From an uncultured eubacterium 1-6 (GTDB taxonomy: Bacteria > Bacillota > Clostridia > Lachnospirales > Lachnospiraceae), in the NCBI GenBank assembly GCA_903789595.1, contig CAIFEZ010000008.1, forward strand, positions 1-64,000: a stretch of 64,000 nt of DNA, written 5' to 3'. Positions 1 through 46,220 of the stretch are shown in pieces; positions within the stretch are counted from its first letter, which is position 1, and each line of letters opens with the position of its first letter. The translations under genes were made by a program, and so were the position numbers. The notes beneath the pieces were generated by a model. That model saw only the letters and a program-made list of their open reading frames with translations. It did not search any database and was not told the origin of the DNA.

Positions 1-567
1 TAAATTCTTGTTTATCTCAGTATTAACTTCTATTTTGTCATCAATCGATTTCAAAACAGAAACAATTCTATCTTGAACTCTTCTTTCTGGGACAATAAGA
101 CTCATTCGTTTCAAATCCGCCAAAGTAATATGCCCCAAACCTGTTGTTTGCTTGTTGGTGGCAATCTCAGTAAAAACTGGTTTCAAGCATTTGAGAACAT
201 AATATAAAAAATTTTTGCTCACCAGCTTCTCATTAGCAGTAACCTTAAATATATGCTGATTAAGCCACCCATCTTCTAACCGGTATCTGAAAACATCTAT
301 TGACGTTTGGGGATTACCAGACCATGAAAACAACAAATCGTCCCAGTGTAGAGCAACATCTTCTCCGTAATCACCGCTTGTATATGATGTGTTGGAGCTT
401 ATACCATTATTAAGCTCAGCTATCTTAATTACAGGCTTTCCTGTTTCAGAAAAGTCAATCCTCTTGAAGGCCAGCCCGTTCTTCCATGTTGCCAGTTCAT
501 ACAGACTATATCTTTCGCCAGAAAGACCCGATTCAACGTGATATAAAGTAGATTCGTCAAATTTCAT
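1..567 (-). CDS. hsdS: Type I restriction-modification specificity subunit HsdS (partial, N-terminal part)
   Basis: Open frame of 189 codons with no stop, running off the left edge. Translation starts MKFDESTLYHVE and continues as one target recognition domain. It reaches the typical central coiled-coil motif (SVLKSIDDKIEVNTEINKNL) exactly at the edge, so about half of a normal HsdS is present. HsdS gives sequence specificity to the HsdM/HsdR complex. Its ATG lies inside the last codons of hsdM (11-bp overlap), indicating translational coupling. The second recognition domain and hsdR would lie to the left. Family call is firm; the recognised DNA site cannot be read from sequence. Confidence 0.93.
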   Translation of the reverse strand, partial: MKFDESTLYHVESGLSGERYSLYELATWKNGLAFKRIDFSETGKPVIKIAELNNGISSNTSYTSGDYGEDVALHWDDLLFSWSGNPQTSIDVFRYRLEDGWLNQHIFKVTANEKLVSKNFLYYVLKCLKPVFTEIATNKQTTGLGHITLADLKRMSLIVPERRVQDRIVSVLKSIDDKIEVNTEINKNL

Positions 568-2065
568 ATCCGATCGCCCCCAGCTTCTTCTGGATCTCAT
601 CCTCGAGTTCGTGTGACTTCTTGAACATTTCTGAAAGCTCGGATGTCAGGCGATCCATTTTCTCCTCGAAAGGCTCGCCGTCATCCTCCTGCTCCTCGAT
701 GCCGACATAGCGCCCCGGCGTAAGAATATAATCCTGCTTAGCGATGTCCTGCGTGGTGGCGACAGCACAGAATCCCTTCACGTCCTCAAGTGTTCCATTC
801 TGAAAAGCATAGAACGTATCCGCCAGCTTCTGGATATCCTCCTCAGAGAAATCACGGTGTTTCCGGTCGACCATGTGGCCCATCTTGCGGGCATCGATGA
901 ATACGGTTTTACCTTTCTGCTTCTTGTTCTTCGTGATGAACCAGAGTGTAACCGGAATCGTGACGCTGTAGAAGAGTTGCGTCGGCATGGCGACAATGCC
1001 TTCGATCAGGTCATCATTGATGATGTTCTTCCGGATTTCTCCCTCGCCAGACGACTGCGTGGAAAGGGCACCATTTGCCAATACCAGTCCGATTTTGCCA
1101 TTCGGTGCAAGGTGGAAAATCATATGCTGAATCCATGCATAGTTAGCGTTTCCTGCTGGAGGCAGACCGTACTTCCAGCGCTTATCATCTTTCAAGAGTT
1201 CCTGTCCCCACGGATGATAGTTGAAGGGCGGATTTGCCAAAATATAGTCCGCTTTTAATGTCTTATGCAGATCATTCGTGAAGGTATCCGCATTGTAAGG
1301 ACCGAGGTCAGCGTCGATTCCACGGATAGCCATGTTCATCTTTGCCATCTTCCACGTATCCGGGTTTGCTTCCTGTCCGTAGACCGAGATGACGCCACGG
1401 TTATGGCTGTGTCCTTCCGCGAATCGCTCAGACTGTACAAACATTCCACCACTACCACAGCAGCAATCGTATACACGGGAGTTCGGCTCCGGTTTCAAAA
1501 TGGCGACGAGCGTTTTGACGATGCTGGATGGAGTATAGAATTCTCCGCCACCTACGCCTTCTTTCTCCGCAAACTGAGCAATACAGTATTCGTATGTGCG
1601 CCCGAGCAGATCCTCGCTGGCCCGCGTGTCGGACATATCAATATTATTCGTGAAGATGTCGACGACATCGCCAAGGACCTTCTTATCCAGATCCGGAGAG
1701 GCATAGTTCTTCGGAAGAACATTCTTTAGACTCTTGTTGTCATTCTCGATAGCGCGCATTGCTGTATCGATGACTGTCCCGATTTCCGGCGTATGCGCTG
1801 CTGCCGCGATGGTCTCCCAGCGTGCCTCCTTCGGTACGAAGAAAATGTTGTCCATCAGATAAGCATCCGGATCATTTTCAAATCCTTCGCCTTCCGCAAT
1901 CAATTTCCTGTACTGTGCCTCAAAAGCCGCTGAAATGTAGCGCAGGAAGATCAATCCGATAATTACCTTCCGATATTCTGCTGCAGGAATATGTCCCCAA
2001 AGGACACATGCTGCATCCCAGATCTGTTTTTCAAAGCCAATGTTGGCGCTCGTCTTTTCTGCCAT
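557..2065 (-). CDS. hsdM: Type I restriction-modification N6-adenine methyltransferase HsdM
   Basis: 502 residues, full length for the family. An N-terminal HsdM helical domain is followed by the methyltransferase core: FYTP near 177-180, SAM-binding motif I (YDCCCGSGGMF, about 199-209) and catalytic motif IV NPPF (278-281). It methylates adenine at the site chosen by HsdS and forms the core of the restriction complex. The start codon overlaps the stop of the upstream XRE gene by one base, and the 3' end overlaps hsdS, so XRE-hsdM-hsdS are one transcript. No truncation is seen. Confidence 0.96.
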   Translation of the reverse strand: MAEKTSANIGFEKQIWDAACVLWGHIPAAEYRKVIIGLIFLRYISAAFEAQYRKLIAEGEGFENDPDAYLMDNIFFVPKEARWETIAAAAHTPEIGTVIDTAMRAIENDNKSLKNVLPKNYASPDLDKKVLGDVVDIFTNNIDMSDTRASEDLLGRTYEYCIAQFAEKEGVGGGEFYTPSSIVKTLVAILKPEPNSRVYDCCCGSGGMFVQSERFAEGHSHNRGVISVYGQEANPDTWKMAKMNMAIRGIDADLGPYNADTFTNDLHKTLKADYILANPPFNYHPWGQELLKDDKRWKYGLPPAGNANYAWIQHMIFHLAPNGKIGLVLANGALSTQSSGEGEIRKNIINDDLIEGIVAMPTQLFYSVTIPVTLWFITKNKKQKGKTVFIDARKMGHMVDRKHRDFSEEDIQKLADTFYAFQNGTLEDVKGFCAVATTQDIAKQDYILTPGRYVGIEEQEDDGEPFEEKMDRLTSELSEMFKKSHELEDEIQKKLGAIGYEI

Positions 2066-32958: not shown

Positions 32959-34863
32959 ATGGGCTTCAAATTCAACGGCAGAACTTCCCAGAGCTTCGGC
33001 CTTGCCACACGAATGACCAAAGAATACAGGATGCCGGATTTCACCAATAATACGATCACCGTTCCGGGACGCGAGGGCGTGTTCGACTTCGGTGAGACGA
33101 TCGGCGAAAGGAAGATCGAGATTTCCTGCTTCATCCCGCCGGGCAAATCCGACGCGGACTTTCTCGCACGAAAAGATGAAATCATCGCATGGCTGAATCC
33201 GGACGAGGGGCTCCGCGATCTGATCCTCGACAAGGAACCGGACCGCGTGTACAAAGCGAGACTCGAAGGAGGATTCTCTTTTGATAAGGCGGTTCGCAAC
33301 TCCTGCACTTTCGATCTCACGTTTTTCTGCCCGGACCCGTATGCCTACGCGGAAGCAGACGAAACCTATGAATTCACCGAACCCGGCACTTTCACGTTGA
33401 ACCGGGAACTTGGAAACGCGGACTCCCTTCCGGTCTATCTCCTTCAGGCCAGTCTCACGAAGGAAAAAAGCGCCGTTCTGACCACAAACGGTAAATCACT
33501 GGAAATCAGCGGACAACTCGGAAAAGAAGAGATCCTCGTGATCGACTCCGCGCTCATGACGGCTAAAGTCACGGATGCGGAAGGCAATACGCTCCGGAAC
33601 GGTCTGCCGCTCATAAAAAGCCTGAACTTTCCGGAACTTAACCCCAGCGGGAATACACTCGTGATCGACGCGGACAGCAACATCGAGCAGGTTGTCAGAG
33701 AGCTGAAATCACAGGAATATTTCACAGGACAGGTTCCCGCCTTCTGGGGAACGGACGGTCTGTGGCGGTTCAACGAATCAGAGCCTGACTCCAACACCAG
33801 TCTCGCCGACTCCTCCGGCAAAAACCGCAGTGCGGTAATCAGCGGATGGAGCGGCACGACCGCAAGCCTTCCATCCGGGCATCTCGGACGGTCATTCAGA
33901 ATGAATATCAACGACCCGGAGACAGAAAAAACCTATCTCAAGGTGACGAACGACGGTACGATCTTCTCCACGCTCGGGGAAACGATCGCCGTCGGAGGGT
34001 GGTTCATGCCGACCACCTACTCCGTCGGGAATACGTACTGCCCGCTGTTCAACACGCGCTACGGCCCTGGGCAGCCGATCTTCTACCTGTCGCTTTTATC
34101 CGGGAAGCCGAGGATTATGCTCTACGATTCTTCAGGGACTCTGATCCTCGATAAATCCGTGACGCCGTCTTTTACTCTGGGAAACGGCGGCTGGTATTTC
34201 ATCGCCTGTCTCATCAGACCAAACGACAAAACCGCGCAGTACATTCTTGGCGATCGCAGCACCGGCACGGTCTGGGAATCGGACGTCCTCAGTTTCACGG
34301 GGACGCTCAACGCCTCCTGCACGGCGGACCTGATCTGGGGCATGCATTCCGACTCCTACTGGTATGCGGGCAGCTTCGACGACTGGTTTCTCGACTGCGA
34401 TTCCGACCTCACCGCGGATGACATATCCCTGTGGCTCAAGGAATCACTGTCCGCAAACGCTGCGGATTCCGATGCCAGCGTGGACGGGCTCACAACGGAG
34501 AACGCCGTGACCCTGAAAGCGGCAAGCGGCGCATACCCTTCGTCCGGGACGCTCACCACGGCGGCTGTTTCCTACGGTATTGAAGGCACCTGCCTTGTCA
34601 CCGTGGACGCGGAAACCCCGGACGGGACCGGGATCACGGCAGAAACTTCGACATCGGACGATCTTTCGGAATGGAGCGACTGGGCTTCACTCGGAGATGA
34701 CGGCAGCGTGCAGTCCGGATCAGGGCAATACATCCGTTTCAGGATAACCCTTACGACAACGGACACCTCGAAGACCCCGACGTTCAGAGGGATCAGTCTT
34801 TCCGTTCCGGGAGAATCATCATTCAAGAAGCTGAAGATAATAGCCCGCAGCAGATGGAGGTGA
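32959..34863 (+). CDS. Distal tail protein (Dit) with LamG-like and other C-terminal domains
   Basis: 634 residues. The N-terminal 130 or so are Dit-like: FKFNGRTSQSFGLATRMTKEYRMPDFTNNTITVPGREGVFDFG...IEISCFIPPG, ending FDLTFFCPDPYAYAEA. A beta-rich region follows, with a LamG/concanavalin-like domain (about 270-480: DGLWRFNESEPDSN.. and GGWFMP..) and a final discoidin-like segment. Dit forms the hub at the tail tip; the extra domains probably bind carbohydrate (inference). Confidence 0.88.
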   Translation: MGFKFNGRTSQSFGLATRMTKEYRMPDFTNNTITVPGREGVFDFGETIGERKIEISCFIPPGKSDADFLARKDEIIAWLNPDEGLRDLILDKEPDRVYKARLEGGFSFDKAVRNSCTFDLTFFCPDPYAYAEADETYEFTEPGTFTLNRELGNADSLPVYLLQASLTKEKSAVLTTNGKSLEISGQLGKEEILVIDSALMTAKVTDAEGNTLRNGLPLIKSLNFPELNPSGNTLVIDADSNIEQVVRELKSQEYFTGQVPAFWGTDGLWRFNESEPDSNTSLADSSGKNRSAVISGWSGTTASLPSGHLGRSFRMNINDPETEKTYLKVTNDGTIFSTLGETIAVGGWFMPTTYSVGNTYCPLFNTRYGPGQPIFYLSLLSGKPRIMLYDSSGTLILDKSVTPSFTLGNGGWYFIACLIRPNDKTAQYILGDRSTGTVWESDVLSFTGTLNASCTADLIWGMHSDSYWYAGSFDDWFLDCDSDLTADDISLWLKESLSANAADSDASVDGLTTENAVTLKAASGAYPSSGTLTTAAVSYGIEGTCLVTVDAETPDGTGITAETSTSDDLSEWSDWASLGDDGSVQSGSGQYIRFRITLTTTDTSKTPTFRGISLSVPGESSFKKLKIIARSRWR

Positions 34864-34868
34864 CAGAC

Positions 34869-36242
34869 ATGGCGGACGATAAGGACCTCATCGTTCTCGA
34901 TAAGGAAGGAAACAAAGAAGCCGTACTCGAAAACACCTATAACGTCATCGTCACGGGTGAGATCAACGGCATCGATACGCTGGAGTTCAATCTGCCTTTC
35001 AAGGACGGCAAACGAAAATATCTTGAAAACGAGAAACAGATAACGGTAGGAAACGATATTTACCGAATCCGCACCATAACGGACGAGAAAAACGAGCAAG
35101 GAGCCGCTGTCACCTCCGTATATGCCGAAGCCGCGTTCTATGATCTCGGATTCTCAGTGAAGAAAACGAAACAGACCTTCAACGCGGATACGGCCGACGT
35201 CCCGATGACCTACGCACTTAAGGACACCGGCTGGACGCTCGGAACGGTCAACGTCCGCACGAAGCGCACCTGGACATCTACGGAGAAAAACGCTCTGGCG
35301 ATCCTCCGGAAGGTGCAGGATCTTCACGGAGGCGACCTTATCTTCGACAATGCGAACAGGACCGTGAGCCTTCTGACCTTCAGCGGCACGGACTCCGGCG
35401 CGCTCTTTTGCTATAAAAAGAACATGAAGTCCATCAAGCGCGTCATCGACACGCAGAGTCTCATCACGCGCCTTTATGCCTACGGCAAGGACGGCATGAC
35501 ATTTGCATCCATCAACGACGGGAAGGAATACGTCGAGGACACCACATACACAGACGAGATCCGCATATCCACGCTCGACTGCTCGAATTTCACGAACCCC
35601 TACCAGATGAAGGAATACGCTGAAATGCGTCTCGCGGATTACGCCTCCCCTCGCATCTCCTACGTTCTGAACGCGATGGATCTCTCCGTCCTCACAGGTT
35701 ATGAACACGAAACATGGAAGCTCGGCGACATCGTGACCGTGAAAGACGACGAACTGGGCCTTTCCATCAAGACAAGGATCGTGCGGCGGGAATACAACCT
35801 GCGTGAACCATGGAACACCGTACTCGAACTGTCGACTACGCTCCGGGAACTCGGAGACTCCTCGTCCCAGTGGGACGCCGCCGCCGACACGCTCGCCGGA
35901 GCGAACCTCGTCGACAGCCAGGAGATGCAGGACCTTGTGCCGTTCAACCATCTGAAGAACTCACGAGCCGACTCCGGCCTGTCTTACTGGGAAAATTCCG
36001 GATTCGAAGTGGATGCGGAAAACGGCGTCTCGGGAACCGCCTCCTTCAAATGCGCCGGAGCGCTGAATACCACAAAAAGCCTGACGCAGACCGTGACTCC
36101 GGCGAACCGGGACAGTTACACCTTCTCCTGCCAGATCGCATCGGATGATCTGAAAAAAGGAGAAAACGGTCAGGTCGGCGTGGAGGTCACCTTCGAATAT
36201 GAAGACGGAACTACAGAGACACGGTTTATCGATCTGATGTAA
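34869..36242 (+). CDS. Tail-associated (Tal-like) minor structural protein with carbohydrate-binding C terminus
   Basis: 457 residues from ATG 34869 (GGAGG 8 bases upstream). The N-terminal part (LIVLDKEGNKEAVLENTYNVIVTGEINGIDTLEFNLPFKDGKRKYLENEKQITV) is the phage minor structural protein/prophage tail endopeptidase family (siphophage gp27-like hub). From about 365 (NHLKNSRADSGLSYWENSGFEVDAENG) a beta-sandwich carbohydrate-binding module begins. No protease active site is evident. It follows Dit in the usual order. Confidence 0.85.
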   Translation: MADDKDLIVLDKEGNKEAVLENTYNVIVTGEINGIDTLEFNLPFKDGKRKYLENEKQITVGNDIYRIRTITDEKNEQGAAVTSVYAEAAFYDLGFSVKKTKQTFNADTADVPMTYALKDTGWTLGTVNVRTKRTWTSTEKNALAILRKVQDLHGGDLIFDNANRTVSLLTFSGTDSGALFCYKKNMKSIKRVIDTQSLITRLYAYGKDGMTFASINDGKEYVEDTTYTDEIRISTLDCSNFTNPYQMKEYAEMRLADYASPRISYVLNAMDLSVLTGYEHETWKLGDIVTVKDDELGLSIKTRIVRREYNLREPWNTVLELSTTLRELGDSSSQWDAAADTLAGANLVDSQEMQDLVPFNHLKNSRADSGLSYWENSGFEVDAENGVSGTASFKCAGALNTTKSLTQTVTPANRDSYTFSCQIASDDLKKGENGQVGVEVTFEYEDGTTETRFIDLM

Positions 36243-36253
36243 GGGAGAAAGAC

Positions 36254-36448
36254 ATGGCAAGTTTTACGCACGTGGCGCAGGCGGTCTCTCCGCAGAACGG
36301 ACGTGTCAAAAAAATACGTGTCCGGGTCTGCGTGACTGACTGCACCGGAACCATCCATATCACCGACATGCTCCTGCAGGGCGGATCGATCGCGACCGGA
36401 TGGGTCGGGCATGTAAGCGAGATCAAATGGACGGAGGACGGTGAGTAA
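36254..36448 (+). CDS. Small tail-tip protein, paralogue of the next gene
   Basis: 64 residues from ATG 36254 (AGGGAGAAAGAC upstream). KIRVRVCVTDCTGTIHITDMLLQGGSIATGWVGH closely resembles part of the next protein (QVTDCTGTVWFTDLMLQEGDRLSGY). It probably pairs with or decorates the tail-tip proteins. Confidence 0.7.
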   Translation: MASFTHVAQAVSPQNGRVKKIRVRVCVTDCTGTIHITDMLLQGGSIATGWVGHVSEIKWTEDGE

Positions 36449-36450
36449 TC

Positions 36451-37032
36451 ATGCCGATATTTACACGATTCACTGAAACCATCGAGAAAAAGGAAAAGAA
36501 GCGTATCATCTCAGTCACACTGAAACCACAGGTGACCGACTGCACAGGAACGGTCTGGTTCACCGATCTCATGCTGCAGGAGGGCGATCGCCTCTCCGGA
36601 TATGCAGTCAACACGGAAACACTTCAGAAGGAGTATGAAACCGGCGATGAATATGCAGTCACTGGCAAACGATTCTACAACGGCATTGTCCGCGGAAGCA
36701 TGACCTGCATCATCTTCAACCTTGGTAAGACCACCGCAGGACTCGACTGGAAGATCACGCCCAACCAGAACATGAAAGCCGGCAGCGTTTCCCTTGCCTT
36801 AGGCGCCGGAGCGCACAAGGCGACCTTCACCGAAGCGGCAGCCGCCGGAGACGAACTGAAACTTCTCGCTTCTTCACGGGAATGTCTGAAAAACGGATCG
36901 GACGCTTCAAAGGACGGCTTTTTCCAGTATTCAGCCGCCGGGGACAGCAAGCATCCGGTAACGGTCGAAGATAAGAAGTCGGCACGGCTCTACGTTGAAT
37001 TTCAGGAGATGGAGGACGGTGATCTGATATGA
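36451..37032 (+). CDS. Tail-tip protein with VTDCTGT beta domain
   Basis: 193 residues from ATG 36451 (GGACGGTGAGTAATC upstream). The N-terminal 65 residues repeat the fold of the preceding small protein. The rest (YNGIVRGSMTCIIFNLGKTTAGLDWKITPNQNMKAGSVSLALGAGAHKATF) is beta-rich and of unknown family. It overlaps the GH18 gene by 4 bp, so it is probably part of the same baseplate or receptor-binding unit. Confidence 0.7.
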   Translation: MPIFTRFTETIEKKEKKRIISVTLKPQVTDCTGTVWFTDLMLQEGDRLSGYAVNTETLQKEYETGDEYAVTGKRFYNGIVRGSMTCIIFNLGKTTAGLDWKITPNQNMKAGSVSLALGAGAHKATFTEAAAAGDELKLLASSRECLKNGSDASKDGFFQYSAAGDSKHPVTVEDKKSARLYVEFQEMEDGDLI

Positions 37033-39503
37033 GCCTTGATGTACTCAAAGGCCGCAAGTGTATGGTCTGGACATTTATGGGAAACGCGAGAATGTACACC
37101 GCGCTTGATAATTACGGAGACCGCCTGTCACAGGTCGGTCTTTTTTCTTTCAAGGTAGACAAGACCGGTACCATCACGGAATCCGGCGTGGCGATCAGCG
37201 ACATGCTGACCTACGTCAATAAATACTCTCACATCACATGGCTTCTGACCGTCCGGAACGACGGGACATCCAGCGTGTTCACCGCCCTCATGGAAAACAC
37301 GGACGGCGCGCAGGACAAGTTCCTGACGGAGCTCGTCCGAATCATGGAGAAATACCCGTGGGCCGCTGGCGTCGACATCGACCTTGAGAGAGGCGGCGAT
37401 TATTCCACGCACGCAAAGTCCGCCGCCATGTTCCGGAACATCTGGAACGCGGTCAAAACTTATGATAACACAAAGAAAGTCAATATCTGTCTCCCCGGAA
37501 TGAGCTCGGTGAACGGCTCGGTCGGCGGCGAAAACTGGTGCGTCTACGCAGATCTGAACGATTACTGCGATACCGCTGCCATCATGAGCTACGGCATGGC
37601 GTGGGCGGGTTCCGCTCCGGGGCCGGTGTCCCCGAAGGACTGGCTTGACGGCATCTACGACTATGCCTCCCGCGTCATGACACCGGAAAAAGTGTTCATG
37701 GGGCTTCCCGCCTACGGCTGGAACTGGCAGATCTATGACACGCCGGAAAACCTCGGCAAGACCTACCGCGGAATATCCAACACATACTACGCGGCGAAAA
37801 ACTGGATGACGGGAAAATACAACTTCACGGACGACAAACCTCCGCAGCCGTTCATCCCGATCCTCGCCTATTGGGACGACTACAACAAGGTTCCTTATGC
37901 CTTCCCGCAGGTCTATGACTTCATGGAAGGAAGGGACGCCGCAAGTTATGAGTACCCGCAGCTGAACGGAACATACAACCGCAGACATTACCTCACGGCC
38001 TACGGCAAGACACAAAAATCGAGCTTTGGCACCATCTACGTGGACCGCGACGGAACACCGGACAGCTATTCCGGCATCGTCTCCAGTGAAAACGGCATCG
38101 CGGTCATGGGTGACGACGGGAGCGCGACATACCGCTTCAACGTTCCCTCATCCGGGACTTACGACATCGCGGTACGGCTCTGCTATCCTTTCTGGGACAA
38201 AAACGGCATCTACATATCGATCGACGGAACGAAAAAGCATTTCACCGAGTCACGGCTGTGGTGGCCGTACTGGAGAAGCACCTTCTGGGCGAGTCTCGCG
38301 GACGGGATATCCCTCTCCGCCGGAGCGCATACCATCACGGTGTCAGTCGACGTAAAAGGCGTCCAGTTCTACGGATTCCGCGTCTGCTCAGCCTTTTCAG
38401 AGTCCCCGTCCGCGGGATTGGCTTCCTTCACGCTTTGCCCACGAAAGTTCATCGACGTGAACGGAAACGAATGCCAGCCTGACAAGGGCTTCAAGCTCAC
38501 GACCGAAGTGCTGCGCAGAAAGCCTGATTCCGCGCTCATATGGTACGCCGATTTCAGAGACCCCGGAACTCTTGAAACCGGTTACTGGAAAACCATATCC
38601 GGCTCATGGAAAATCTGGCGTGAGGACGAAAACTCAGAAGACCGCGTCTATTCCCAGCTTGAAGGCAGCGGACAGTTCGCATGGAACTATGACGGATTCA
38701 GGGACATACATCTAAGGGCAAGGCTTGCAATTCCGGAAGGAAGCACTGGAAGATCCGGCATCTTCTGTGGGAGCCTTTTCTGCTGTCTCAACTATGACAC
38801 GCAGGCCGTGGAACTTTGGAACGGCGGTGCGAAAATCGGAAGCTACAGCCAAAGCATCATCCGGACAAGGACAGCTGACCTGAGAAGCAATCCGAATATG
38901 TACACTATCGAAATGCGGATCAGAGGAAACAACGTGCGCGTCTATTCAGGTGCTTCCTATACGCTTCGCTTCAAGGCGAGTGTCAGCGGATTCACCGGAG
39001 GCGCGGCAGGCTGCCAAAGCGACGGCAGGACCGTCTGCGAACTCCTCCGGATGGGTGATGCATGGACTTACGAACCGTACGAACGTTTCGATGTGACTTT
39101 CCCGGACGGCAGCACCACACAGTATGGCAGGATCAGCCGCACAAACTGCACATGGGACAACGAGTTCCAGTTATTCACGCTGACCTCTGACATGGAAGAA
39201 TCCGAAACGCGAAGCGAATCCATCTCGATGGACTACGAATTCTTCCATTCGAAGCAACTTAACCTCGTATGCGGAAATGACTACACCGTGACAATCACAC
39301 CGAAAGACATCAACATCTGGATCTCGCGCCTGTTCCTTGGCGATGCAGACGGATTTTCGATTCTCTACTACCAGGACTCGGATTCGCTCGTCTACTGGGC
39401 GAATCAGGCCGCCTATCGATGGGGACTTCGCGGAATAGCAATCTGGTCACTCGGCCAGGAAGACTTAAGACTCTGGGAGGCGCTTCCGAAACAAACCGGA
39501 TAA
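37029..39503 (+). CDS. GH18-type glycosidase-like tail protein with an inserted carbohydrate-binding region
   Basis: 824 residues. The GH18 barrel begins at the N terminus (CMVWTFMGNARMYTALDNYGDRLSQVGLFSF) with catalytic DIDLE (about 115-119) and MSYGMAW, then AYGWNW. After about 310 residues the barrel is interrupted by beta-rich domains (including a LamG-like segment). The last 75 residues resume barrel-like sequence (FSILYYQDSDSLVYWANQAAYRWGLRGIAIWSLGQED), as in the last GH18 strand. It likely cleaves or binds GlcNAc-containing cell-surface polymer during adsorption. Confidence 0.85.
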   Translation: MSLDVLKGRKCMVWTFMGNARMYTALDNYGDRLSQVGLFSFKVDKTGTITESGVAISDMLTYVNKYSHITWLLTVRNDGTSSVFTALMENTDGAQDKFLTELVRIMEKYPWAAGVDIDLERGGDYSTHAKSAAMFRNIWNAVKTYDNTKKVNICLPGMSSVNGSVGGENWCVYADLNDYCDTAAIMSYGMAWAGSAPGPVSPKDWLDGIYDYASRVMTPEKVFMGLPAYGWNWQIYDTPENLGKTYRGISNTYYAAKNWMTGKYNFTDDKPPQPFIPILAYWDDYNKVPYAFPQVYDFMEGRDAASYEYPQLNGTYNRRHYLTAYGKTQKSSFGTIYVDRDGTPDSYSGIVSSENGIAVMGDDGSATYRFNVPSSGTYDIAVRLCYPFWDKNGIYISIDGTKKHFTESRLWWPYWRSTFWASLADGISLSAGAHTITVSVDVKGVQFYGFRVCSAFSESPSAGLASFTLCPRKFIDVNGNECQPDKGFKLTTEVLRRKPDSALIWYADFRDPGTLETGYWKTISGSWKIWREDENSEDRVYSQLEGSGQFAWNYDGFRDIHLRARLAIPEGSTGRSGIFCGSLFCCLNYDTQAVELWNGGAKIGSYSQSIIRTRTADLRSNPNMYTIEMRIRGNNVRVYSGASYTLRFKASVSGFTGGAAGCQSDGRTVCELLRMGDAWTYEPYERFDVTFPDGSTTQYGRISRTNCTWDNEFQLFTLTSDMEESETRSESISMDYEFFHSKQLNLVCGNDYTVTITPKDINIWISRLFLGDADGFSILYYQDSDSLVYWANQAAYRWGLRGIAIWSLGQEDLRLWEALPKQTG

Positions 39504-39577
39504 CAGGAAACTACCTTTTCCCTCAAAATCGCGCTTCTACCGCGTAACAAATCCACAGCAAAGGAGTTGATGAAGCT

Positions 39578-40492
39578 ATGGCAGTTTTCCGCGTGGAGCG
39601 AAACAAGGGCTATACCGTAATGAGTAACCACCACCTACGCAACAGGGAGCTTACGCTAAAGGCAAAGGGCTTGTTGTCGCAAATGCTTTCACTTCCCGAA
39701 GATTGGGACTACACCCTTGCGGGGCTATCCCACATCAACCGGGAGAAAATCGACGCTATCCGCGAAGCGGTACGGGAGCTTGAACGAGCCGGGTATATTG
39801 TCCGCAGCCGGGAGCGCGACGAGAAAGGACGCTTGCGCGGCGCGGACTATGTGATTTACGAGCAGCCGCCTAACTTGGATTTACCTACATTGGAAAATCC
39901 AACATTGGATAATCCAACGCAGGAAAAACCTATGTTGGAAAACCCTACGTTGGAAAATCCAACGCAATTAAATAAAGATATACAAAGAACTGACTTACCA
40001 AAAAAAGAAAAATCAAATACGGATTTATCAAGTACCCATTCCATTCCTATCCATTCCCTAAATCCCTTGCCTTATGACGGTGAAGCGGCAGAGCCGGAAC
40101 GGAAAGGAAAAGAAGCGGCGGCACAGAGCGCGGTAGAGATATACCGGGAAATCATCAAGGACAATATCGAGTATGACATTCTCTTGCAGGACAGCCACAT
40201 GGATAAAGACCGTATCGACGAGATTGTAGACCTCATGCTTGAAACGGTATGCACAGCGCGTAAAACAATCCGTATCGCCGGGGACGACTACCCCGCCGAG
40301 CTTGTGAAAGCAAAGTTTATGAAGCTGGACAGCGAGCATATCCGCTTTGTGCTTGACTGTATGCGGGAGAACACAACGAAAGTACGCAACATCAAGCAGT
40401 ACCTACGGGCGGTGCTGTTCAATGCCCCGTCTACTATCGGCAACTATTACACTTCCCTTGTCGCCCATGACATGGCGACGGGCAAAATCTGA
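39578..40492 (+). CDS. Replication initiator/RepA-like protein of a conjugative element (DUF6017-type)
   Basis: 304 residues from ATG 39578 (AAAGGAGTTGATGAAGCT upstream). The N-terminal winged helix MAVFRVERNKGYTVMSNHHLRNRELTLKAKGLLSQMLSLPEDWDYTLAGLSHINREKIDAIREAVRELERAGYI is the RepA N/DUF6017-linked type. A repeat linker of LENPT-like pentapeptides (about 99-128) precedes a C-terminal DUF6017-like domain (IYREIIKDNIEYDILLQDSHMDKDRIDEIVDLMLETVC). It may initiate replication of the excised element. Confidence 0.85.
   Translation: MAVFRVERNKGYTVMSNHHLRNRELTLKAKGLLSQMLSLPEDWDYTLAGLSHINREKIDAIREAVRELERAGYIVRSRERDEKGRLRGADYVIYEQPPNLDLPTLENPTLDNPTQEKPMLENPTLENPTQLNKDIQRTDLPKKEKSNTDLSSTHSIPIHSLNPLPYDGEAAEPERKGKEAAAQSAVEIYREIIKDNIEYDILLQDSHMDKDRIDEIVDLMLETVCTARKTIRIAGDDYPAELVKAKFMKLDSEHIRFVLDCMRENTTKVRNIKQYLRAVLFNAPSTIGNYYTSLVAHDMATGKI
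39872..39961 (+). repeat. Six tandem 15-bp repeats inside the Rep-like gene
   Basis: Units begin at 39872, 39887, 39902, 39917, 39932 and 39947. Most contain the palindrome TTGGAAAATCCAA or a variant, and each encodes a pentapeptide such as TLENP. The combination of tandem 15-bp period and internal dyad resembles initiator-binding iterons. Confidence 0.7.
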
Positions 40493-40506
40493 AAGGAGAT
40501 ACGACC

Positions 40507-40725
40507 ATGAAACAGGGAGCTTTGATTTTTGATGAAACCACCGACCGCTACGACATTCGCTTTGATATTGCCGACTACTACGGCGGCCTGCATTGCGGAG
40601 AGTGTTTCGACGTAATGATTGGCGGCAAGTGGAAGCCTACCCGCATTGAAATGAATATGGCGCAGGAATGGTATCTTGTGGGTATCAGAGCCGACGACCT
40701 GAACGGCTTGCGGGTGCGGATTTAA
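40507..40725 (+). CDS. DUF5348 family protein
   Basis: 72 residues from ATG 40507 (GAAAGGAGATACGACC upstream). LIFDETTDRYDIRFDIADYYGGLHCGECFDVMIGGKWKPTRIEMNMAQEWYLVGIRADDLNGLRVRI is typical of DUF5348, a small beta protein that follows the Rep-like gene in many conjugative elements. No known activity. Confidence 0.85.
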   Translation: MKQGALIFDETTDRYDIRFDIADYYGGLHCGECFDVMIGGKWKPTRIEMNMAQEWYLVGIRADDLNGLRVRI

Positions 40726-40772
40726 CGGGGGCGACGTGAAGAACGGACGCCCCTTTTTGCATAATAGGGGCA

Positions 40773-40800
40773 CCCCGCAAAGTCGCATGACTTTGTGGGG
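40773..40800 (+). repeat. Strong 12-bp inverted repeat ahead of pcfB
   Basis: CCCCGCAAAGTC (40773-40784), GCAT loop, GACTTTGTGGGG (40789-40800), with a single G-T pair. It lies in the 200-base gap between DUF5348 and PcfB genes. The gap also allows a basic 45-codon ORF from the ATG within the repeat (ending 40924), which may or may not be real. Confidence 0.6.
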
Positions 40801-40924
40801 AAAGGAGGAGCAGCGGCGCGAGCGAGTTTTTGCCGCAAGGCAGAAACGAGCGATACAGAGCTTGCGACGACGCGCGGCGTACCACCCTAACAGCTATCAC
40901 AATACCGCGAAAGGAGGACGGTAA

Positions 40925-41410
40925 ATGCAAGATGAAGTCAACGAAAAAGTAGTTGCCATATCCATAAAGGCAACGAAATTAACGGCAGCACTTTTACAAG
41001 CCGCCATGAAAAAGCTGCTTGCACAGGCAAAAAAGCAGCTTGATAAACAGGCGGTGCCAAAAGGCAAGCAGACCCTAAAGCAGCTTATGAAGCAGAACAC
41101 GGGCGTTTCCAATATCGAAATCACCGACGACAATATCAAAGCCTTTGAGAGTACGGCGAAGAAGTACGGCGTTGATTTTGCGCTGAAAAAGGACACCACC
41201 GAAACGCCGCCCCGCTACCTTGTGTTTTTCAAGGGGCGCGACGCCGACGTTTTGACCGCAGCCTTTAAGGAGTTTTCCGCAAAGAAGCTGACGCAGGATA
41301 GGAAGCCCTCAATCCGCAAAGCGTTAGCCGCCTTTAAGGACAAGGCGAAGCAGCTTAACGCCGAGCGCGTCAAGGTAAAAAATCAAAACAGAGGGGGTAT
41401 CGAGCTATGA
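40925..41410 (+). CDS. pcfB: PcfB family (DUF3801) conjugation protein
   Basis: 161 residues from ATG 40925 (AAAGGAGGACGGTAA upstream). KVVAISIKATKLTAALLQAAMKKLLAQAKKQ and FALKKDTTETPPRYLVFFKGRDADVLTAAFKEFSAKKL match PcfB, an accessory of conjugative relaxosome and coupling protein in Gram-positive elements. It overlaps the VirD4 gene by 4 bp, as usual. Confidence 0.88.
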   Translation: MQDEVNEKVVAISIKATKLTAALLQAAMKKLLAQAKKQLDKQAVPKGKQTLKQLMKQNTGVSNIEITDDNIKAFESTAKKYGVDFALKKDTTETPPRYLVFFKGRDADVLTAAFKEFSAKKLTQDRKPSIRKALAAFKDKAKQLNAERVKVKNQNRGGIEL

Positions 41411-43200
41411 AAAGCGTAAACGTGAAAAAGCTGCTGCTTCCGAATATCCCCTATCTGCTCTTTGTCTATCTTTTTGATAAAGCGGCACAGGCGGTACGTT
41501 TGTCGCCGGGTATGGACTTATCCGGCAAGATATTACATCTTGGGGACGGTTTCGCCGCCGCTTTTGCGAGTGCCGTGCCGAGCTTCCACCCCGTTGATTT
41601 ACTTGTGGGCGTTGTGGGCGCGGTGCTTATCCGGCTGATTGTCTATGTGAAAGGCAAGAACGCGAAGAAATACCGCAAGGGCGTTGAATACGGCTCCGCG
41701 AGGTGGGGCAACGCCGAGGACATTAAGCCTTACATTGACCCGGTATTTGAAAATAACGTGCTGCTCACGCAGACGGAACGACTGATGATGAACAGCCGCC
41801 CGAAGCAGCCGAAGTACGCGAGGAATAAAAACGTGCTTGTAATCGGCGGCAGCGGAAGCGGCAAGACAAGATTTTTCGTCAAGCCTAACCTTATGCAGCT
41901 TCATTCGTCCTACGTCGTTACCGACCCGAAAGGAACGGTTTTAATCGAGTGCGGGAAGCTCTTGCAGCGCAGCGGGTACAAGATAAAAGTGCTGAATACG
42001 ATTAACTTCAAAAAATCCATGAGGTACAACCCCTTTGCGTATATCCGCGACGAAAAGGATATTTTGAAGCTCGTAAACACCTTGATAGCGAATACCAAAG
42101 GCAGCGGCGAGAAATCCGGCGAGGATTTTTGGGTGAAAGCCGAAAGGTTATTGTATTGCGCCCTAATCGGCTATATCCACTATGAAGCCCCGGAAGCAGA
42201 AAAGAACTTTACGACGCTGCTTGAAATGATTAACGCAAGCGAAGCCCGCGAGGACGACGCCGAGTTTCAAAGCCCCGTTGACCTCATGTTTGAACGCTTG
42301 GAAGAAAAAGACCCGGAGCATTTCGCGGTGAAGCAGTACAAAAAGTTTCTGTTAAGCGCGGGCAAGACCCGTTCCTCAATCCTCATTTCTTGCGGCGCGA
42401 GGTTAGCCCCATTCGACATTAAAGAGCTACGGGAGCTTATGGAAAGCGACGAATTGGAGCTTGACACGCTGGGCGACAGGAAAACGGCGTTGTTCATCAT
42501 CACGAGCGACACCGACAGCACTTTTGACTTTGTTACAGCAATGATTGTATCGCAGCTTTTCAACCTACTTTGCACAAAAGCAGATGATGAATACGGCGGG
42601 CGGCTTCCCGTTCACGTCCGTTGCCTGCTTGACGAGGTAGCCAACATCACCATTCCAAACCTTGAAAGGCTGATAAGCGTATTCCGAAGCCGGGAAATCT
42701 CCGCTTGCTTGGTGGTGCAGGCGCAGAGCCAGTTAAAAGCAATCTACAAAGAGAACGCCGACACCATCATAGGGAATTGCGACACGACCCTTTTCTTGGG
42801 CGGCAAGGAAAAGACCACGCTCAAAGAAATATCCGAGGTTTTGGGGAAAGAAACGATTGACAGCTTCAACACTTCCGAAAACCGGGGGCGGGACGTATCG
42901 CATGGGCTGAACTATCAGAAGTTGGGAAAAGAGCTTATGTCGCAGGACGAAATCGCCGTCATGGACGGGGGAAAATGTATCTTGCAGCTACGGGGCGTGC
43001 GCCCGTTCTTTTCAGATAAGTTTGATATAACAAAGCACCCGAAGTACAAGTACCTTTCCGACTTTGACAAGAAAAACACCTTTGACATTGAGCAGTTTCT
43101 AAAGCGGCAGCGACGCCCGGTAATCGTGAAGCCGGACACCGTTTTTGACTACTACGAAATCGACGAAGCGGATTTACAGGAGGACGCAGCCAATGAATAA
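41407..43200 (+). CDS. VirD4/TraG-type type IV coupling protein
   Basis: 597 residues. N-terminal membrane segments (LLLPNIPYLLFVYLFDKAA; PVDLLVGVVGAVLIRLIVYV), then EYGSARWGNAEDIKPYI, Walker A VIGGSGSGKTRFFVKPN (about 148-157), the TDPKGTVLIECG motif, Walker B region VRCLLDEVANITIPN and SRGREISACLVVQAQSQL. It pumps the relaxase-DNA complex to the mating channel. The relaxase and channel genes are absent from this fragment, so it is probably not functional alone. Confidence 0.93.
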   Translation: MKSVNVKKLLLPNIPYLLFVYLFDKAAQAVRLSPGMDLSGKILHLGDGFAAAFASAVPSFHPVDLLVGVVGAVLIRLIVYVKGKNAKKYRKGVEYGSARWGNAEDIKPYIDPVFENNVLLTQTERLMMNSRPKQPKYARNKNVLVIGGSGSGKTRFFVKPNLMQLHSSYVVTDPKGTVLIECGKLLQRSGYKIKVLNTINFKKSMRYNPFAYIRDEKDILKLVNTLIANTKGSGEKSGEDFWVKAERLLYCALIGYIHYEAPEAEKNFTTLLEMINASEAREDDAEFQSPVDLMFERLEEKDPEHFAVKQYKKFLLSAGKTRSSILISCGARLAPFDIKELRELMESDELELDTLGDRKTALFIITSDTDSTFDFVTAMIVSQLFNLLCTKADDEYGGRLPVHVRCLLDEVANITIPNLERLISVFRSREISACLVVQAQSQLKAIYKENADTIIGNCDTTLFLGGKEKTTLKEISEVLGKETIDSFNTSENRGRDVSHGLNYQKLGKELMSQDEIAVMDGGKCILQLRGVRPFFSDKFDITKHPKYKYLSDFDKKNTFDIEQFLKRQRRPVIVKPDTVFDYYEIDEADLQEDAANE

Positions 43201-43387
43201 GCGTATCAGGAAGAAAAAAGAACAACAGCGGCTTGCATGGACTATTCAAGAGCTTGTCAAAGAAACCTTGCGTCATGGAAATGTGGATAACAGGCTATTG
43301 CGCTATGGAAAACGCCATTCACAGCACATGGAAAAGCAAGAGCAGCTTTCCCACGTCCTGCAAACAGCGTTTCCCACAGCTCCATAA
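43193..43387 (+). CDS. Small basic protein of the conjugative-element module
   Basis: 64 residues from ATG 43193, overlapping the end of the VirD4 gene by 8 bp (GGAGGACGCAGCC upstream). Very basic start (MNKRIRKKKEQQRLAWTIQELVKETLRHGNVDNRLL). Small ORFs of this kind follow the coupling protein gene in related elements; no function known. The next 320 bases to 43710 hold no clear gene but contain two copies of a 17-bp sequence (43538-43554 and 43682-43698). Confidence 0.6.
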   Translation: MNKRIRKKKEQQRLAWTIQELVKETLRHGNVDNRLLRYGKRHSQHMEKQEQLSHVLQTAFPTAP

Positions 43388-43710
43388 GACAGCCAGTTAC
43401 CCACATTCCCACAACGCCTACTACGACGGAAACAGACCCTTTCCTACCTGTCATTTAGAAAACAAAACCTTAAAGGAGGTGGTACATCTATCAAAACCGT
43501 AAATGTGGACTACATGGTACGCGCCCCTACTTTGGAACGCACAGCGGCAGAAAGCCGCAGCGTACCAACATACAACTGAATACCGCCCCGCCGCAGCACT
43601 TCACGCAGCGCGGGGACACAAGCCGCCAAACATGGGCGGCTTTTTTCATTCCCGAAAATAAAATCAAACAATTTTTTGAGCCGCACAGCGGCAGAAAGTG
43701 AGGAAACTAT

Positions 43711-43851
43711 ATGGCATTTTTCAATTCGGCAGTAGGTGTTTTGCAGACTTTGGTAATCGCTCTGGGCGCGGGCTTGGGTATCTGGGGCGTTATCAATTTG
43801 CTTGAGGGCTACGGCAACGACAATCCCGGGGCTAATGCTCATAGTCGATAA
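43711..43851 (+). pseudogene. Maff2 family membrane protein, truncated
   Basis: Starts MAFFNSAVGVLQTLVIALGAGLGIWGVINLLEGYGNDNPG, which is the Maff2 family, then shifts to ANAHSR and stops at 46 residues. Intact family members continue with a second hydrophobic helix. The truncation point (near 43830) is therefore a deletion or insertion junction of the conjugative element. A GAGGAAACTAT ribosome binding site is intact. Confidence 0.8.
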
Positions 43852-44097
43852 AGAAGCGGGCAATAAAAAACACACAGATAGCCCCCCCGCGCTATTCCGT
43901 AAATATACTTGTGTTAGATAGGATAACAAATCAGAAATTTGTGGACGAGAAAGGATGTCAATTTTAGAAAAGAATAAAGTGGGGACTTGCTACAAGCGAA
44001 AACGGGAAAACATGATTTTTTTGTCTGATTATTTGGATCAAAAAATTTTTGTCAATATTCACCTTGCATGTTATTCCAAAAGCTCCGCAGGCGGACA
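43852..44097. other. Gene-free junction between truncated Maff2 and the glycosyltransferase
   Basis: A run of seven C (in GATAGCCCCCCCGCG) and A/T-rich sequence. Only a short ORF of 62 codons from 43955 with no recognisable family is possible here. This marks the break in the conjugative-element module. Confidence 0.5.
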
Positions 44098-45327
44098 TCA
44101 CAGCCGGATAATCTGCTGCCATACCTTTTGTGTCTCGATATAGCCCGCGTAATGCCGCTTTACATTTTTGCAATATTTTTCAAATTCCGTGGAGATGGTC
44201 AGAAAGCGCTCATCCTGAAAGTTTTCAGCCATTAGCGGCACGGTGTGCTCAAGAGAAGACCTCATGGAGCGCATCTCTGTCTCAAATTCGTCTGGCTTGG
44301 TAATGTAGCAGAGTAGCGGCTTATACCGCACCCAGCCCACACATGCCTTGAAAAAGCGCGTGACTACCTGAGGCGACTCGGCGGTTATATGCGCAAGATG
44401 TATCGGCAATACGCCATCCAGCAGGTGCTGATAGCATGAAAAGCCGTCGTGAAACGCATAGCACGGCACCTTTAGGACCTTGCGGTCCCGGAGCATGGTG
44501 GAGAGGAAGGTATCTTCGCCTCTGGCGCCGGGCGGGTTATAAAATGGCAGGGAGCGCAGCGGATCCCGGAGGTTTATGCATAGGTTCGCTCCAGAGATGA
44601 AGCGGCAACCGTTTTCCCAAGGGACCTCTATCGTCTCCGGTTTTGCCAATACTGCGGTGGAGGCATAGGTGACTCCGCCTGTGGCCATGAGTTGGCGGAT
44701 GGTGTCCCAGCTTATTATGTCGTTGCTGATGGCCTCGACAAACAGACGGAAATCCGACTCACCAAGGGTGTTGTTGAAGCGCATCTGCGGAATGGGCGAG
44801 ATATATCCGCAGTGATAGCCGTTAGTGTAGTCGGCGTCTTCAATCTCCTTGAGATGGTCGTAGAATACACGCTGGCCGCTCCAAAGACACAGGTCGTTGT
44901 TGTTTGTGACAGCCATTGGATATTCGTCATCGTCCAGAAACAGCAGATAGTCCATTTTCAACTCTATGGCGGCGAGAAGTATGGCATTACGTTTGCCAGC
45001 ATATCCGGATCCGAACACGCGTTTTAATGCTTCAGGTGACAAGCTATCCCGCTGCTCTAATTCGGCAAGCTTTCGTGCGGTGTTTTTGGGGCCGATGAAT
45101 ATTATGTCGTCGAATGCGTCCACTATGTCTTGTTTGAGATTTGTAAAGTCCGTGGACTGGGTATTCTGATAGTTGAGGTCGTAGGAAACAAAAAGGCTCA
45201 GGTGTACATCGATGTCCTGAGGCAATTCCTTTTTTGTTTCATTCCAAGTGGCTATGTAGGCGTTCAGTACTTTTTTGAATGAGCGTCGCCCAGTGGCAAA
45301 GCCTATTCCGAGATCTATTTTTTTCAT
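44098..45327 (-). CDS. GT-A-type glycosyltransferase-like protein (inverted cargo gene)
   Basis: 409 residues from ATG 45327 (AAGGAACTGGATA upstream; an earlier in-frame start has none). MKKIDLGIGFATGRRSFKKVLNAYIATWNE begins a GT-A fold. AGKRNAILLAAIELKMDYLLFLDDDEYP gives the Asp-rich metal-binding motif; a later ARGEDTFLSTMLRDRKVLKVPCYAFHDG fits the acceptor/catalytic region. It is the only minus-strand gene in the middle of the prophage and has lower GC, suggesting cargo. It could alter cell-surface glycans (inference). Confidence 0.72.
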   Translation of the reverse strand: MKKIDLGIGFATGRRSFKKVLNAYIATWNETKKELPQDIDVHLSLFVSYDLNYQNTQSTDFTNLKQDIVDAFDDIIFIGPKNTARKLAELEQRDSLSPEALKRVFGSGYAGKRNAILLAAIELKMDYLLFLDDDEYPMAVTNNNDLCLWSGQRVFYDHLKEIEDADYTNGYHCGYISPIPQMRFNNTLGESDFRLFVEAISNDIISWDTIRQLMATGGVTYASTAVLAKPETIEVPWENGCRFISGANLCINLRDPLRSLPFYNPPGARGEDTFLSTMLRDRKVLKVPCYAFHDGFSCYQHLLDGVLPIHLAHITAESPQVVTRFFKACVGWVRYKPLLCYITKPDEFETEMRSMRSSLEHTVPLMAENFQDERFLTISTEFEKYCKNVKRHYAGYIETQKVWQQIIRL

Positions 45328-45636
45328 TATCCAGTTCCTTTCCCTGCGTTTCGACAAAGCCGATACCAGTCTGTTTTTTCTAGTATAACAAAATATCGCC
45401 GCCAAAGCAAATTCGGACGAATGGGGGTTGTGGTCATAGTTTTGCGATATAACTTTTTATTGATTTGATAGACGGAAATCTTCTTATAAGCCCTCATAAA
45501 TGTTTAAGGCACCATGAGAAAATGGCTTAAAATCAAGGTTTTCCGCATATCGTCGTTTATCTTGCCGTATCTCCGTACAAGGTAGTTTTGTAAGACCGGG
45601 CACCATTTTAGCACCACAAAAATAAAGGAGGACGAC

Positions 45637-45999
45637 ATGAATAACGTACTTTTAGACAAGGGTATTATAACCCCGTCCGGCGAAATCAGCAAGGATAAGA
45701 TAAACCTTGTCGCCGGGGCAATCACGCAGCCATTCGCAGAAATGGTATGGGTAACGACGGGCGGCGACATGGAAACCGTAAACCGCCTAACGGACGTACT
45801 CGTAACCATGAACACCCCCGCCGACCGGGAAAAGCTGTTCAAAATCATTAAGCTGCTTTACGGGCTTATGGGCTTGCGCTTTTCCGAGGAAGCCGAGCCT
45901 ATGGACGCAGACCCCGACGTATTGGAATACTTCATCTTTTCCTTTACGGCAGACTTTGGCGAAGTCATGCAGGACATTATCGCTGATGAAAAAGAATAA
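45637..45999 (+). CDS. Conserved conjugative-element-type hypothetical protein
   Basis: 120 residues from ATG 45637 (AAAGGAGGACGAC upstream). Acidic and helical: ISKDKINLVAGAITQPFAEMVWVTTGGDMETVNRLTDVLVTMNTPADREKLFKIIKLLYGLMGLRF. Base composition and ribosome binding site style match the conjugative-element genes at 40-43 kb rather than the phage genes. The 300 bases between it and the glycosyltransferase gene (45328-45636) hold nothing recognisable. Confidence 0.65.
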   Translation: MNNVLLDKGIITPSGEISKDKINLVAGAITQPFAEMVWVTTGGDMETVNRLTDVLVTMNTPADREKLFKIIKLLYGLMGLRFSEEAEPMDADPDVLEYFIFSFTADFGEVMQDIIADEKE

Positions 46000-46011
46000 C
46001 GACCCGCACAG

Positions 46012-46059
46012 GCGGCGTTTCTCAATCCCCACCGGGGAGAAAAGGAACGCCGCTTTTTT
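46012..46059 (+). terminator. Rho-independent terminator at the end of the conjugative-element fragment
   Basis: GCGGCGTT (46012-46019) pairs with AACGCCGC (46046-46053), followed directly by TTTTTT. It would block read-through from the fragment, and possibly from the phage late operon, into the lysis genes. The following 160 bases to the holin contain no gene. Confidence 0.8.
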
Positions 46060-46220
46060 CATGCCCTCATGTTACGCAGTAGCGCCGAAAGAAGCCTTGT
46101 ATCATGGGGCTTTGCGGGCGCGGTTTTGACAAGGCAAGGGGAATATAAAGAATCCGTTTCACGGCTGCCTGCATTACCGCAGACAGCCTTTATTTATGCC
46201 ATTTTCAAAGGAGGTTATAC

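What the first reader, a model, noticed from the sequence alone, without database searches (positions are those of the whole stretch)
37029..39503. GH18 barrel apparently split by a large carbohydrate-binding insertion in a tail protein
The catalytic DIDLE and MSYGM motifs are in the first 310 residues, but a typical last barrel strand (LRGIAIWSLGQED) appears only at the extreme C terminus, after some 400 residues of beta-rich domains. This implies insertion of binding modules into the final loop of the barrel. A chitinase-like fold is also unusual for host adsorption in Firmicutes phages and may target a GlcNAc polymer.
Basis: partly seen in the sequence, partly recalled or inferred. Interest (0 to 1): 0.5.

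Follow-up and report, generated by a model that had tools for sequence, protein, structure and literature searches.

The report
Prophage tail GH18 enzyme, split barrel
A gene in a prophage's tail region encodes a chitinase-type (GH18) sugar-cutting enzyme whose last barrel strand comes only after some 500 extra residues that include sugar-binding-like domains; the arrangement looks real and recurs in many phages of Gram-positive bacteria, but what the enzyme cuts is untested.

Summary
ORF 37029-39503 (824 aa) has GH18 motifs early and LRGIAIWSLGQED at 800-812. A full-length model puts barrel strands 1-7 at residues 10-226, and helix 784-796 plus strand 8 (802-808) at the C terminus. It superposes on whole GH18 barrels (SleL 4s3j, Z 27.7, 286 residues, range 2-824). 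A profile of 13 ordinary GH18 ORFs matches 38 of 38 family C-terminal pieces at i-E <= 0.1, and 0 of 1081 controls. The insertion lies between strand 7 and its helix, where the small chitinase insertion domain sits in other GH18s. It holds a CBM35/CBM6-like module (tentative), a CBM66-like jelly roll (Z 19.6) and an unassigned beta domain. The family (phrog_3432) is widespread, so GH18 here is not unusual; a distant member is TP84_26 of Geobacillus phage TP-84. Best reading: an active GH18 hydrolase of a GlcNAc-containing envelope polymer, with binding modules on the catalytic face. Attachment to the virion is inferred from gene order, and TP-84 virion proteomics speaks against it. New variant of a known kind.

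The parts
37029..39503 (+). Whole ORF, 824 aa: split-barrel GH18 protein, phrog_3432 'minor tail protein'
   Evidence: PHROG match 6-823 of the protein
37050..37733 (+). GH18 barrel part 1, residues 8-235, strands 1-7
   Evidence: Pfam PF00704 43-292; model strands 10-16, 35-43, 70-76, 114-118, 150-156, 182-186, 222-226
37374..37388 (+). Motif DIDLE, residues 116-120 (E120 the catalytic acid by GH18 homology, recalled)
   Evidence: D116, D118, E120 in 160 of 160 distinct sequences
37734..38033 (+). Residues 236-335, after strand 7, at the place of the chitinase insertion domain; 228-277 modelled poorly
   Evidence: pLDDT under 50 at 228-277; aligned in 18 of 18 distant rows
38034..38411 (+). 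CBM35/CBM6-like beta-sandwich, residues 336-461 (tentative)
   Evidence: Pfam CBM_35 353-441, E 0.00028, 21.6 bits, below the cutoff of 28; Foldseek hits of the insert model to CBM6/CBM35 chains, place in the model not given by the table; aligned in 1 of 18 distant rows
38538..39068 (+). CBM66-like jelly roll, residues 504-680
   Evidence: VIA Z 19.6, rmsd 1.7, 141 of 161 residues of 4b1m_C, insert-model range 205..378
39069..39338 (+). Beta domain, residues 681-770, no fold assigned
   Evidence: Aligned in 18 of 18 distant rows; strands; not searched alone
39339..39488 (+). GH18 barrel part 2, residues 771-820: helix 784-796, strand 8 (802-808) with W806
   Evidence: mean 88% identity to the window protein over 142 close rows, the highest of seven segments
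32959..34863 (+). Dit-type distal tail protein with an extra C-terminal module
   Evidence: Pfam Sipho_tail; phrog_33 and phrog_3475
34854..36242 (+). Prophage_tail (Tal-type) protein
   Evidence: Pfam PF06605 E 4.6e-77
36254..36445 (+). Small conserved ORF, 64 codons (stop not included)
   Evidence: Similar to TP84_24, a BSP7 ORF and a Microbacterium phage ORF
36451..37032 (+). 193-aa tail protein; its stop overlaps the GH18 start as ATGA
   Evidence: phrog_12827; overlap read

Best explanation
The protein is a catalytically competent GH18 hydrolase encoded in the tail-tip gene cluster of a siphophage-type prophage. Residues 8-235 give strands 1-7 of the barrel and residues 771-820 give the last helix and strand 8. 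The inserted domains sit in the loop between strand 7 and helix 7, which in TIM barrels lies on the catalytic face. Inferred mechanism: the modules hold an envelope polysaccharide against the cleft while E120, with D118 and Y188, cleaves at a GlcNAc-type sugar by substrate assistance, clearing a path for adsorption or DNA injection. Shown here by computation: split barrel, conserved catalytic residues, place of insertion, fold of one module, recurring tail-gene order. Inferred: activity, substrate, virion location, role of the modules.
For: Superposition on whole GH18 barrels reaching the C terminus (VIA Z 27.7, 286 residues, 2..824; Foldseek E 7.2e-14). Unsplit GH18 ORFs match the family profile in two pieces in the right order in 7 of 13 cases, clearest in L256 (324-542 to profile 17-238; 577-622 to 770-816). 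Profile test 38 of 38 against 0 of 1081, and 4 of 4 further Geobacillus/Bacillus phage members. Catalytic residues conserved. CBM66-like fold. Order Dit, Tal-type protein, small ORF, small tail-type protein, GH18, with lysis genes nearby, in TP-84, BSP7 and (with one more ORF) a Microbacterium phage. Best fold matches include spore cortex-lytic SleL.
Against: TP84_26, the TP-84 relative, is not among the 14 virion proteins found by MS, while its neighbours TP84_22, 23 and 25 are (PMC5889276, passages). [quoted passage not shown] The full-length model is of middling confidence (pLDDT 75.7, pTM 0.58) and poor at 228-277. VIA gives only the first and last aligned residue. In 6 of 13 unsplit ORFs no second piece was found. 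No substrate was tested. The CBM35 match is below Pfam's cutoff.
Confidence: 0.62

Rival explanations
1. A soluble envelope (capsule or exopolysaccharide) depolymerase or lysis helper, made late and released at lysis, not a stable part of the virion.
For: TP84_26 is absent from the 14 MS-detected virion proteins and is reported in the soluble lysate; its authors offer tail fibre or lysis protein as the two readings; a review mentions plaque halos of TP-84 and a possible glycosylase-depolymerase (PMC8303945, passages); lysis genes follow it in relatives.
Against: It lies in the tail cluster and its start overlaps the stop of the preceding tail gene; the Microbacterium rows listed call it minor tail protein, though that label may rest on position. 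A low-copy tip protein can be missed by MS.
Confidence: 0.25
2. A lectin-like adhesin: the barrel binds but does not cleave and serves only for adsorption.
For: Inactive GH18-like lectins exist (general knowledge; an agglutinin, 4uri, is among the matches).
Against: D116, D118, E120 in 160 of 160 and Y188 in 159 of 160 distinct sequences.
Confidence: 0.08
3. The C-terminal strand is a chance resemblance and the N-terminal 330 residues make a full barrel.
For: Residues 1-335 were not folded alone; the C terminus alone scores weakly against the PDB (E 0.02 to 1); strand 8 has only moderate pLDDT (mean 73 for residues 801-810).
Against: residues 771-820 are the best conserved segment.
Confidence: 0.03

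Closest known systems
phrog_3432 'minor tail protein' family
   Same: Match over 6-823 of the protein, E 0
   Different: Same family; the entry as printed names no enzyme and no split barrel
TP84_26 glycosylase of Geobacillus phage TP-84
   Same: 22.6% identity over residues 5-820; C-terminal strand found apart from the rest of the barrel; same gene order; Foldseek TMq 0.67
   Different: 991 aa, longer; only distantly related in sequence
GH18 spore enzymes SleL/YaaH and YdhD (4s3j, 4s3k, 3cz8)
   Same: GH18 barrel
   Different: Chains of 319 to 436 residues without room for an insertion of this size
Chitinase insertion domain (CID) of GH18 subfamily A
   Same: Inserted at the same place, between strand 7 and helix 7 (PMC2805709, passages)
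   Different: The CID is a small alpha+beta domain; here several beta domains follow
CBM66 of Bacillus subtilis (4b1m)
   Same: Fold of residues 504-680, Z 19.6, rmsd 1.7
   Different: 16% identity; ligand residues not examined

Membership tests
GH18 | Sequence match above the curated cutoff | tested here: met
   PF00704 53.6 bits against 29.6
GH18 | Acidic motif with catalytic Glu on strand 4 (motif recalled) | tested here: met
   D116, D118, E120 in 160 of 160; the first Asp of the usual DxxDxDxE is not fixed: A113 here, D in 81 and A in 50 of 160
GH18 | Complete (beta/alpha)8 barrel | tested here: met
   By model and superposition on whole GH18 barrels; not by experiment
GH18 | Hydrolysis of a GlcNAc-type linkage | not testable with these tools
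   No assay
phrog_3432 | Profile match over the full length | tested here: met
   6-823 against 2-803 of 812
CBM35 | Match above Pfam's cutoff | tested here: not met
   21.6 bits against 28; CBM6/CBM35 chains among the Foldseek hits, so it may work like one but is not filed as one
CBM66 | Fold | tested here: met
   Z 19.6, 141 residues, on a predicted model
CBM66 | Ligand-binding residues and levan binding | not tested
   Not examined
Virion tail protein | Present in purified particles | not testable with these tools
   For the TP-84 relative the published MS list does not hold it

The most novel reading that the evidence does not exclude
Because the binding modules are threaded through the seam between strands 7 and 8, ligand binding by the inserted modules could shift the last strand and so switch the active site on: a receptor-gated hydrolase that cuts only once the phage has docked.
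Probability: 0.1. Interest if true: 0.6.

Novelty: new variant of a known kind. Interest (0 to 1): 0.36.

Why it matters
It sets out the domain layout of a common, little-studied phage tail-region enzyme: a GH18 barrel closed only by its last 50 residues, with variable modules built into the loop on the catalytic face. This explains why domain searches see only the first half, gives limits for expression constructs, and links these prophages to the TP-84 glycosylase.

Tried and rejected
Paper searches: none of the listings (titles and abstract starts only) names a split GH18 in a phage tail. Searches returned no paper. The single papers were not opened. The library lacks most subscription journals, so this is weak evidence of absence. 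That TP84_26 is a proven capsule depolymerase is recalled only and not used as evidence.

The N-terminal part was not folded alone. A viral-contig scan with the BSP7 protein confirmed no relative (8 pattern matches). NCBIfam gave only one chance-level match for the protein (E 0.22). In the VIA list of the insert model the rows lie mostly on the CBM66-like part, so the first module and residues 681-770 are barely tested. The ORF between Dit and the Tal-type gene in phages GBK2 and GR1 is comparable to the window's module by position only; blastp found no similarity. Of 249 loci 243 gave a usable full-length ORF, 160 of them distinct; 6 were dropped, among them copies with an in-frame stop or cut by a contig end.

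Full report
Observation. The ORF at 37029-39503 is intact and 824 aa long. Pfam finds GH18 only in residues 43-292 and stops at profile position 280 of 317. In three distant members it likewise sees only the first part: 56-227 of 709, 79-324 of 931, 83-236 of 696.

Is the barrel split? The full-length model (36 aligned sequences; pLDDT 75.7, pTM 0.58) has strands at 10-16, 35-43, 70-76, 114-118, 150-156, 182-186 and 222-226, and much later helix 784-796 and strand 802-808; the last strand has moderate confidence (mean pLDDT 73 for 801-810). VIA-align places the model on whole GH18 barrels: SleL 4s3j, Z 27.7, rmsd 3.2, 286 residues, model range 2..824; 5jh8, Z 27.2, 277 of 317 residues, 8..820. 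These ranges give only first and last aligned residues. Foldseek agrees (5jh8, E 7.2e-14).

Independently of the model, ordinary GH18 ORFs of related genomes were compared with the family profile. Of 13, 7 match in two pieces in the right order, 6 in the first piece only. The second piece is clear in L256 (324-542 to profile 17-238, then 577-622 to 770-816, i-E 9.9e-7) and L265 (3.2e-5), and weak in the other five (0.01 to 2). In L256 35 residues separate the two pieces; in the window protein about 530. Conversely, a profile built from the 13 ORFs matches the C-terminal 75 aa of 38 of 38 family members at i-E <= 0.1 (26 at <= 0.01), against 0 of 1081 controls at that level and 1 at <= 1. Searched in whole proteins the second match lies at profile positions 276-324 in all 38 but is weaker (i-E 0.0024 to 5; window protein 0.1). 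Four further Geobacillus and Bacillus phage members also show it (i-E 0.0099 to 0.039).

What is inserted? The place, between strand 7 and helix 7, is that of the small chitinase insertion domain of GH18 subfamily A (PMC2805709, passages). Residues 336-461 resemble CBM35/CBM6 (Pfam 21.6 bits, cutoff 28; CBM6 and CBM35 chains among the Foldseek hits of the insert model). Residues 504-680 match CBM66 (Z 19.6, rmsd 1.7, 141 of 161 residues; insert model pLDDT 85.8, pTM 0.75). Residues 681-770 are a conserved beta region without an assigned fold. Of 18 distant rows (16 of the Microbacterium-phage type, one Glutamicibacter phage, Bacillus phage BSP7) all cover the CBM66-like part and the C terminus, and only 1, BSP7, covers the first module; TP-84 and its kin also carry it. 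So the split is shared by all, and the first module came or went separately (inference).

Family and distribution. In the phage collection 189 records match, 187 cover at least 80%, and 166 are Microbacterium phages. In the genome collection 230 of 302 candidate stretches encode relatives, 80 kept. The window's genome has three copies, 100, 86 and 72% identical. Of 61 genomes searched (the own one and 60 relatives) 18 match, but only the own genome and G037 have full-length copies; the other 16 match only within residues 14-286. The gene is thus patchy among close relatives, as expected for a phage gene.

Setting. Terminase, portal, protease, capsid and tail genes run from 22600. The order Dit, Tal-type protein, small ORF, second small protein, GH18 recurs in TP-84 and BSP7, and with one more ORF in a Microbacterium phage. 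The 64-codon ORF is similar in all three; the 193-aa protein is similar in BSP7 (E 9e-13), weakly in TP-84 (E 0.009), and not detectably to its counterpart by position in the Microbacterium phage. The GH18 start overlaps the preceding stop as ATGA in the window, TP-84 and BSP7, not in the Microbacterium phage.

Function. D116, D118 and E120 are in 160 of 160 distinct sequences, Y188 in 159 with one unreadable, W806 in 159 with one gap. Their role in substrate-assisted GH18 catalysis is general knowledge, not tested here. The nearest folds include spore cortex-lytic SleL, so peptidoglycan-type glycans or another GlcNAc-containing polymer are plausible targets. TP84_26 was named glycosylase by HHpred similarity to YdhD; its authors offer tail fibre or lysis protein (PMC5889276, passages). 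It is not among the 14 proteins found by MS in TP-84 particles, though TP84_22, 23 and 25 are. The paper places it in the soluble lysate by a band of near mass that was not confirmed by MS. A 2021 review prints a second mass value for it where the 2018 table has none; what experiment that stands for I did not see (PMC8303945, passages). The review also notes plaque halos and a possible glycosylase-depolymerase. I therefore keep a soluble depolymerase as a serious rival.

Verdict. The split barrel is a new variant of a known kind; none of the paper listings named under Tried and rejected describes it.

Noticed in passing
window 32959-36242; L253, L162, L163 against L254, L255, L170, L026, L206, L222, L236: Gene-boundary shift. 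In the window, L253, L162 and L163 the Dit ORF is 634 aa and the next ORF 457-462 aa; in the seven others Dit is 257-260 aa and the next 840-841 aa. The same module sits at the end of Dit here and at the start of the Tal-type protein elsewhere, also in TP-84, BSP7 and a Microbacterium phage. L253 and L163 gave identical rows and may be one locus.
   Followed up: partly
window 39504-46220: About 6.7 kb with a DUF6017/HTH_36 protein, a DUF3801 protein and a T4SS coupling (VirD4-type) protein separates the GH18 gene from the holin (46221) and GH25 endolysin (46635); in L253 holin and endolysin follow the GH18 gene directly. It looks like mobile DNA inserted in the prophage; no flanking direct repeat was seen.
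   Followed up: partly
window 39868-39966: Five overlapping 39-nt copies spaced 15 nt inside the putative replication gene, encoding a repeated ENPTL-type stretch.
   Followed up: no
L021 5001-7466 and L022 3487-5952: Both contigs have one in-frame stop at the same codon (628) of the GH18 gene; they may be copies of one virus.
   Followed up: no
L272, L273: Geobacillus phages GBK2 and GR1 carry a separate ORF between Dit-side genes and the Tal-type gene (annotated adhesin in GR1), similar to each other but not detectably to the window's module.
   Followed up: partly
insert model m22df27c032e6, residues 31-380: VIA rows include mycobacteriophage Douge baseplate chains (8zdp_v Z 13.9 at rmsd 15.4; 8zdo_a Z 13.5 at rmsd 3.6), a hint of similar modules in another phage baseplate.
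   Followed up: no
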